Assembly (NCBI GenBank): GCA_026261815.1
Contig: JAMPIT010000300.1
Coordinates: 62,001-126,000 of the forward strand
Source of the DNA: Monarcha castaneiventris obscurior
Taxonomy: Eukaryota; Chordata; Aves; Passeriformes; Monarchidae
Direction: 5' to 3'
DNA: 64,000 nt
Of the stretch, positions 54,970 to 55,913 are shown piece by piece (position 1 is the stretch's first letter; the number at the start of each line of letters is the position of its first letter). Made by a program: the position numbers and the translations under genes. Under the pieces are notes generated by a model that was given only the letters and a program-made list of their open reading frames with translations, ran no database searches and had not been told where the DNA came from.

Positions 54970-55675
54970 TGGGGGCCACTACAGCACTCACCACTCCAAA
55001 GCTGTCATGAAGGACTAATGACCCTATTTGGGTGACACAGTGGCCTCCCAAAAAAAAGAAATTGAGTGCCCTCAAAAAACTGGTAGCTGAGCAACTGCAA
55101 AAAGGCCACATTAAACCAACAAACAGTCCCTGGAATTCACCTGTATTTGTCATTCACAAAAAAACTTCTGACTCCTGGAGATTACTTCATAATCTCAGAA
55201 GAATTAATAAAGTAATTGAAGATATGAGACCTCTTCAGCCTGGGCTTCCTTCCCTCTCAATGATCCCAAGAAATTAGCCTCTTGTCATCATTGATCTAAA
55301 AGATTGTTTCTTCAGCATTCCACTTCACCCAGAAGACGCTCCACGGTTTGCATTTTCAATCCCTAATGTCAACAGAGAAGAACCACTGCAAAGGTATCGA
55401 GTGGTCCTCCCTCAAGGAATGAAAAATTCACCCACAATTTGCCAATGGTTCGTGGCACAAGCCCTGTCTCCAGCTCAGAAGAAAAATCCACAGGCAAAGA
55501 TTCTTCATTACATGGATGATCTGCATATTGCAACACCAACACAGAAAGAAGTAAAAGCAGCCCGTGACAGTGTTATTACAGAAGTTCAAAAGGTGCAGGA
55601 CCTAAGTGGGTTCAAGCAAAGAACGTGAAACCATATCACGCAAGACAACAAGAGCCTAATGAGCTCACAAAGTGA
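54963..55675 (+). pseudogene. pol: pol: reverse transcriptase 5' part fused to the integrase tail
   Basis: After the shift the frame reads into RT: WVTQWPPKKKKLSALKKL, then NSPWNSPVFVIHKKTSDSW, IDLKDCFFSIPLHPEDA, LPQGMKNSPTICQ and the catalytic YMDD at 55509-55520. Stops at 55008 (TGA) and 55275 (TAG) break it. At about 55590 the RT match ends. From 55598, in another frame, comes GPKWVQAKNVKPYHARQ, which fits the C-terminal DNA-binding tail of integrase and ends at TGA 55673-55675. RT thumb and connection, RNase H and the integrase catalytic core are therefore deleted. A full avian pol would be more than 2 kb; about 0.7 kb remains. Confidence 0.9.
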
Positions 55676-55913
55676 GAGGCCTGCTCAACCTTCCACTACT
55701 GATGAGCCTTCCACTGCTGCCTCTGAGTCTCCTGTCCGTGCTAACAACCAAGAACATCCTGTAGCTGCAGAACCTCAACCTCAGAAAAGACCAAGAGGAA
55801 GACCCAAAGGAAGCAAGAACAAAAACTCCTCTAAAGCAGCTCAGAAAAAACTAGAGCCCACCAGTGAAAAGCGACCTAGAGGCAGGCCCAGAAAGTGGCT
55901 GCTACCTAACTAG
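55659..55913 (+). CDS. HMGA2-like AT-hook protein captured from the host
   Basis: An 84-codon frame between pol and env, without stops or gaps. Two AT-hooks are plain: residues 43-51 (KRPRGRPKG) and 71-79 (KRPRGRPRK). The linker with SKAAQKK and the final EKRPRGRPRKW are features of vertebrate HMGA2 and not of HMGA1. HMGA2 binds the minor groove of AT-rich DNA and shapes chromatin in embryonic and proliferating cells. Residues 1-25 faintly recall the HMGA2 N-terminus (QPST). The first of the three HMGA2 hooks is missing or unrecognisable, and so are the exon 4-5 spacer and acidic tail. Homology stops at the W where HMGA2 exon 3 ends; LLPN and a stop follow. The absence of introns implies capture from spliced RNA. 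The ATG overlaps the last codons of pol, so residues 1-5 may be viral. Expression is not shown. Confidence 0.88.
   Translation: MSSQSERPAQPSTTDEPSTAASESPVRANNQEHPVAAEPQPQKRPRGRPKGSKNKNSSKAAQKKLEPTSEKRPRGRPRKWLLPN

What the first reader, a model, noticed from the sequence alone, without database searches (positions are those of the whole stretch)
55659..55913. An endogenous retrovirus carries a captured HMGA2-like AT-hook gene
Between the remains of pol and env, where no retroviral gene is expected, lies an 84-codon frame. Its second half has two AT-hooks and the SKAAQKK linker of vertebrate HMGA2. It is intronless and in the same orientation as the virus, within a provirus with intact target-site duplications. 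This points to transduction of a spliced host mRNA. I know of no described retrovirus carrying HMGA2, but I could not search the literature.
Basis: partly seen in the sequence, partly recalled or inferred. Interest (0 to 1): 0.95.

Follow-up and report, generated by a model that had tools for sequence, protein, structure and literature searches.

The report
Bird retrovirus carrying a captured HMGA2
A dead retrovirus copy in what looks like a bird genome carries, between its polymerase and envelope genes, a shortened and altered copy of the host growth-control gene HMGA2, a capture that I did not find described.

Summary
Confirmed in substance. The 84-codon frame at 55659-55913 lies inside a class II avian provirus, in its orientation, between reverse transcriptase and env. 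Its best matches among about 5.8 billion proteins are HMGA2 (HMGI-C), the top two from birds (best E 5e-13, 58% identity over 98%). The match runs from the HMGA2 start codon to the last residue of exon 3, with no intron, no exon 4-5 and no poly(A). Hooks 2 and 3 are unchanged (24 of 24 residues); hook 1 and the acidic tail are gone. The LTRs differ by only 1.2%, but the protein differs from a bird HMGA2 at 29 of 79 aligned residues. The capture is therefore, by inference, much older than this insertion, and the gene changed inside a replicating virus while its DNA-binding hooks were kept. This copy is dead: gag, pol and env are broken and the 3' LTR is truncated. Retroviral gene capture is a known kind; crocodilian CrocERV29 carries KIT-ligand at the same place. 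HMGA2 as cargo appears new within the papers I could search. The host-genome search did not complete (17 tries), so copy number, a host-virus tree and dN/dS remain open.

The parts
51556..51561 (+). TGGAGA, left copy of probable 6-bp target-site duplication
   Evidence: sequence
51562..52268 (+). 5' LTR (3' end inferred from CA followed by a primer-binding-like TTGGTGCTCG); TATA-like 52036-52042, AATAAA 52192-52197
   Evidence: end and signals are my reading of the sequence
52492..52500 (+). strong leader splice-donor-like site CAG/GTGAGC just before the gag start
   Evidence: pattern only
52511..54307 (+). gag, broken: nonsense codon 38, and two frame changes between about 53300 and 53480
   Evidence: p24 C-terminus, zinc finger; ERVK Gag of Prinia subflava 59%
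54308..55606 (+). protease/reverse transcriptase remains, several stops and frame changes; reverse transcriptase cut off near 55600
   Evidence: RVT_1 at 55401-55628 and weakly at 55032-55277; frames
55607..55675 (+). frame WVQAKNVKPYHARQQEPNELTK*, read as the 3' end of pol (integrase C-terminus); its last codons overlap the captured gene
   Evidence: no match, so inference
55659..55913 (+). captured HMGA2-derived gene, 84 aa: HMGA2 start, degenerated hook 1, hooks 2 and 3, stop four codons after the exon-3 end (RKW)
55785..55823 (+). AT-hook 2, KRPRGRPKGSKNK
   Evidence: residues 43-55 of P0001
55866..55898 (+). AT-hook 3 to end of HMGA2 exon 3, EKRPRGRPRKW
   Evidence: residues 70-80 of P0001
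55962..57312 (+). env in two frames (55962-56534 and 56482-57312), one frame change; tail coded inside the 3' LTR
57167..57179 (+). polypurine tract AGAGAGGGGAAGA before the 3' LTR
   Evidence: sequence
57180..57606 (+). 3' LTR, truncated: only part of U3; the end of U3, R and U5 are missing
57605..57639 (+). 35-nt exact copy of 51557-51591 (5' flank plus LTR start), probably a repair scar
57640..57645 (+). TGGAGA, right copy of probable target-site duplication
   Evidence: sequence

Best explanation
An ancestor of this class II avian retrovirus picked up a spliced host HMGA2 mRNA truncated at the end of exon 3 and placed it between pol and env. The probable route (inferred): a provirus in HMGA2 intron 3 trapped exon 3 by splicing into viral sequence; the hybrid RNA was packaged and recombined with a viral genome during reverse transcription. 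The gene then travelled in replicating virus long enough to lose hook 1 and change over a third of its residues while hooks 2 and 3 stayed exact. [quoted passage not shown] freed from the acidic tail and the host 3' UTR, it would mimic truncated HMGA2 and favour growth of infected (progenitor) cells. Shown here: homology, exon limits, position, orientation, hook conservation, LTR age contrast. Inferred: capture route, expression, nuclear DNA binding, growth effect. The present copy is dead.
For: HMGA2 is the best match, E 5e-13, 58% over 98%. The exon 1/2 border at EPTGEPS and the exon 3 end at RKW follow from isoforms of the hits that diverge there; the frame crosses the first without an intron and leaves HMGA2 at the second. 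Residues 1-13: 9 of 13 identical to each of 4 full-length bird HMGA2, at most 7 in the other printed rows (60 rows printed). Reverse transcriptase upstream, env downstream, paired LTRs. LTR distance 0.0119 (5 transitions, 0 transversions in 424), so about 1.5 substitutions expected in 255 nt since insertion, against 29 of 79 residues changed. Hooks 24 of 24 unchanged, the rest 26 of 55, Fisher 1.5e-6; linker alone 5 of 14 changed, Fisher 0.004; neutral simulation run until 5 linker residues changed: hooks unchanged in 65 of 20000, also stop-free in 33. Precedents: CrocERV29 KIT-ligand between pol and env (PMC4299795, sections 9 and 15); vectors in HMGA2 intron 3 trap exon 3 and give clones a growth advantage (PMC9240040, passages).
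Against: Only one copy was seen; the host genome was never searched, and the first protein search listed no closer viral relative (best 67 bits). Whole-length identity does not single out birds: two geckos score 51 of 80, the four birds 50. The integrase reading of 55607-55675 has no database support. Pfam AT_hook scores below its cut-off on this protein (10.9 against 17.4 bits), while a host HMGA2 passes. No strong splice acceptor stands before the frame and the start context is weak, so expression is unproven. The hook test assumes independent sites and a host ancestor like today's.
Confidence: 0.8

Rival explanations
1. Same capture, but the gene served the virus itself: an HMGA-like cofactor of integration or of proviral chromatin and transcription rather than a growth gene.
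For: HMG I(Y)/HMGA1 was identified as the factor restoring activity to HIV-1 preintegration complexes in vitro (PMC3420096, passages). What was kept here is just DNA binding: both remaining hooks are unchanged. LEDGF/p75 also carries AT-hooks (PMC6156844, passages).
Against: Host cells already supply HMGA proteins. Exon-3 truncation is the form known to promote cell expansion (PMC9240040, passages). Nothing here tests virion or integration roles.
Confidence: 0.25
2. Local event: an HMGA2 retrocopy inserted into this provirus after it had integrated.
For: Only one copy has been seen, and the insert is intronless.
Against: No poly(A) (longest A run 3) and no direct repeat longer than 5 nt around the insert; no UTR or exon 4-5; a later insertion should differ from host HMGA2 by about as little as the LTRs differ (1.2%), yet 29 of 79 residues differ.
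Confidence: 0.03
3. The virus captured an already diverged host HMGA2 retrogene or paralogue, so the divergence was not acquired in the virus.
For: Divergence is large, and birds have HMGI-C-like paralogues (P0079, P0080, P0095).
Against: Those paralogues match worse than HMGA2 (54.7 bits for P0080 against 79.0 for P0002) and lack the SKAAQKK linker; no closer host protein is in the list of the best 120 of 129.
Confidence: 0.1
4. Assembly join of viral and host sequence.
For: I could not look at reads or at other copies.
Against: No genomic exon structure or intron sequence is present; the ends fall at the HMGA2 start codon and the exon-3 end; the divergence is not that of a host locus.
Confidence: 0.02

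Closest known systems
CrocERV29 with captured KIT-ligand (crocodilians; PMC4299795)
   Same: Spliced host mRNA between pol and env, sense orientation, ORF open among broken viral genes; purifying selection reported there.
   Different: KIT-ligand is a secreted cytokine; nine copies retaining the ORF were described, here one copy; here pol is internally deleted in the copy seen.
Rous sarcoma virus v-src and other transduced cellular genes
   Same: Cellular proto-oncogene carried as an intronless extra gene by an avian retrovirus.
   Different: src lies after env (recalled) and is a kinase; HMGA2 is a chromatin architectural protein; no transforming activity shown here.
HMGA2 truncated by lentiviral vector insertion in intron 3 (PMC9240040; PMC3186009 describes the beta-thalassaemia case)
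   Same: HMGA2 exons 1-3 without acidic tail and 3' UTR, made by a retroviral element.
   Different: Vector cases are host loci in patients' cells and keep all three hooks; here the truncated gene is carried by the virus and hook 1 is lost.
Class II (ERVK-like) avian ERVs with syncytin-like env, e.g. in Prinia subflava
   Same: Gag 59% (P0242) and env 54% (P0123) identical.

Membership tests
HMGA2 (protein family) | Homology over exons 1-3, SKAAQKK linker, RGRPRKW | tested here: met
HMGA2 (protein family) | Three AT-hooks | tested here: not met
   two hooks; hook 1 has no RGRP core. So: HMGA2-derived, not filed as an HMGA2
HMGA2 (protein family) | Acidic C-terminal tail (exons 4-5) | tested here: not met
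   stop four codons after RKW
Retrovirus with a transduced cellular gene | Cell-derived, intronless, sense, flanked by viral genes inside paired LTRs | tested here: met
Retrovirus with a transduced cellular gene | Insert shared by more than one provirus | not testable with these tools
   The genome search did not answer in 17 tries; viral-contig scan with P0001 gave one unrelated 44% hit
Retrovirus with a transduced cellular gene | Product expressed and altering cell growth | not testable with these tools
   needs a bench
Class II (ERVK/beta-like) avian ERV | Gag p24, CCHC zinc finger, 6-bp target duplication | tested here: met
   PF19317 and PF14787, ERVK Gag hits, TGGAGA at both ends; the 6-bp rule is recalled
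HMGA1 or HMGI-C-like paralogue (considered) | Best match to that paralogue rather than HMGA2 | tested here: not met
   39.3 and 54.7 bits against 79.0 for HMGA2

The most novel reading that the evidence does not exclude
A lineage of infectious avian class II retroviruses carried a two-hook, tail-less HMGA2 derivative as a standing accessory gene between pol and env, under selection for DNA binding: the first virus-borne HMGA2, the natural counterpart of the truncated HMGA2 made by gene-therapy vectors, acting on cell growth or directly on proviral chromatin or integration.
Probability: 0.55. Interest if true: 0.82.

Novelty: new member of a known kind. Interest (0 to 1): 0.73.

Why it matters
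HMGA2 intron 3 is where vector insertions repeatedly produce expanding blood clones in gene therapy (PMC9240040, passages). A retrovirus that independently took the same exon 1-3 piece and kept its hooks would show that nature selected the same truncation for viral benefit, and would give a direct test of what truncated HMGA2 does for a virus. It would also add a chromatin architectural protein to the list of captured genes and a second reptile/bird case of capture between pol and env.

Tried and rejected
Local retrocopy: rejected (no poly(A), no flanking repeat, divergence). Other AT-hook families: some unnamed environmental proteins repeat KRPRGRPKGSKNK (P0056, P0071, P0078, P0115) and score E 1.5e-7 to 2.8e-3, so hook 2 alone is not diagnostic; the linker, hook 3 and start are. 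The viral-contig scan with P0001 gave one 44% hit (L001, not followed), with env none; the phage collection gave none. Searches of the putative integrase end found nothing. Rfam: nothing at gathering level, one sub-threshold RSV_RNA match at 18.1 bits against 105, ignored. tRNA scan: none. NCBIfam: nothing useful. Bacterial promoter scan is irrelevant here. Splice-acceptor scan: no strong site, though the first ATG after the AGs at 55581 and 55598 is the captured gene's. Host-level domestication: not claimed, since an open frame of 255 nt is expected at this LTR age. A tree of HMGA2 copies was not built: the alignable part is nearly invariant across hosts and no host DNA was available.

Full report
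What is there. The frame at 55659-55913 codes 84 residues. In a search of about 5.8 billion proteins, 129 passed E 0.01; the best two are bird HMGI-C (HMGA2) proteins, Phaenicophaeus curvirostris (E 5.2e-13, 58% over 98%) and Balearica regulorum. tblastn of bird HMGA2 exons 1-3 hits only this place in the window with 75.5 bits; among 100 dinucleotide shuffles of the window, 55 gave any hit and the best was 22.7 bits.

Exon limits. Isoforms among the hits show where HMGA2 exons join: alternative starts run into EPTGEPS (P0013, P0030, P0043, P0048), and alternative ends diverge right after RKW (P0002, P0003, P0005, P0009, P0013, P0030). The viral frame starts at the HMGA2 start codon, crosses the first border without an intron, and leaves HMGA2 at the second; four more codons and a stop follow. 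It lacks exons 4-5 and any poly(A). Hook 1 (GRGRPRK in birds) is unrecognisable; hooks 2 and 3 are exact. The exon 2/3 border is recalled from human HMGA2 and not tested.

Which HMGA and which host. Bird HMGA2 queries score up to 79.0 bits on the frame, an HMGI-C-like paralogue 54.7, an HMG-I/Y protein 39.3. Of the 60 rows printed, the 4 bird proteins that hold exon 1 match residues 1-13 at 9 of 13; every other row at 7 or fewer. Whole-length identity is 50 of 80 for these birds but 51 for two geckos, so the bird origin rests on the start of the protein and on the viral relatives.

The provirus. The 5' LTR starts at 51562 and probably ends at 52268. gag begins at 52511, with a stop at codon 38 and two frame changes near 53300-53480. 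Pfam finds Gag p24 C-terminus, a zinc finger, reverse transcriptase and envelope. The gag piece matches ERVK-like Gag of Prinia subflava at 59%, and the env piece matches many bird envelope proteins (143 passed; best 59%, P0122). env is split by one frame change. So this is a broken class II avian ERV in a genome that looks like a bird's; the species is not known to me.

Where the insert sits. Reverse transcriptase ends near 55600. The frame 55607-55675 reads WVQAKNVKPYHARQQEPNELTK* and stops inside the first codons of the insert. I read it as the 3' end of pol; if so, the parent virus had a complete pol, the insert lay between pol and env, and this copy later lost the middle of pol. PDB and Pfam searches of that piece gave nothing, so this is inference. 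What is shown is only that reverse transcriptase lies before and env after.

Ends. TGGAGA lies before the 5' LTR and at 57640-57645. The 3' LTR matches the 5' LTR only to about 57606; then follows an exact 35-nt copy of 51557-51591, which includes 5' flanking bases. A break in the 3' LTR repaired with a short template from the 5' junction would explain it. The end of U3, R and U5 are missing, so this copy lacks its normal poly(A) signal.

Age against divergence. The LTRs differ by 5 transitions in 424 aligned bases, K80 0.0119, or about 3 million years at a recalled rate of 2e-9 per site per year (1.7-5.0 for the range tried). About 1.5 substitutions are expected in the 255-nt frame since insertion. 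Yet 29 of 79 aligned residues differ from a bird HMGA2, while the HMGA2 of a malkoha, a crane, a parrot and a kiwi differ from each other at one position of this region. So most of the change came before this insertion. Since host HMGA2 is nearly frozen, the simplest reading is that it came in a replicating virus; capture of an already diverged host retrogene is not excluded.

Selection. Hooks 2 and 3 have 24 of 24 residues unchanged, the rest 26 of 55 (Fisher 1.5e-6). With the well-aligned linker alone it is 0 of 24 against 5 of 14 changed (Fisher 0.004). In 20000 neutral simulations run until five linker residues had changed, the hooks stayed unchanged in 65, and in 33 of these the frame also stayed free of stops. 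This speaks for selection on DNA binding while the gene was in the virus. An open frame after insertion is expected by chance at this age, so no host use is claimed.

How it probably worked. In patients, vectors in HMGA2 intron 3 trap exon 3 by splicing, giving exons 1-3 without the tail and the let-7-regulated 3' UTR, and the cells gain a growth advantage (PMC9240040, passages; PMC3186009, passages). A provirus in intron 3 would make such a hybrid RNA, which can be packaged and recombined. The viral protein would keep minor-groove binding by two hooks. Growth promotion is my first choice, an integration or chromatin role the second: HMG I(Y) was found as a cofactor of HIV-1 preintegration complexes in vitro (PMC3420096, passages). 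A strong donor-like site lies in the leader, but no strong acceptor before the frame.

What is known. CrocERV29 carries KIT-ligand between pol and env with purifying selection on the ORFs, and CrocERV31 carries nectin3 in place of env (PMC4299795, abstract, sections 9, 10, 15). That paper and a 2026 review of retroviral gene exchange (PMC13297096, passages) hold no mention of HMG or HMGA in the main text. Ten paper searches were made; those with HMGA2, HMGI-C or AT-hook listed no captured HMGA2, seen as listings except for the papers named. Subscription papers are mostly not covered.

Limits. One copy only. The host genome could not be searched, so recurrence, a tree and dN/dS are missing.

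Noticed in passing
57605-57639 and 51557-51591: Exact 35-nt copy of 5' flank plus LTR start at the broken 3' LTR; looks like a templated repair scar.
   Followed up: partly
57180-57312: The env frame runs about 44 codons into the 3' LTR (U3 codes the envelope tail), so the same stretch is repeated in the 5' LTR at 51562.
   Followed up: partly
15963-16647: Two frames reading like a CR1-type LINE reverse transcriptase (label recalled, not searched).
   Followed up: no
L001:5001-5132: A 320-kb IMG/VR contig codes an AT-hook protein 44% identical to residues 6-57; unnamed environmental proteins with tandem KRPRGRPKGSKNK repeats also exist (P0056, P0071, P0078, P0115).
   Followed up: no
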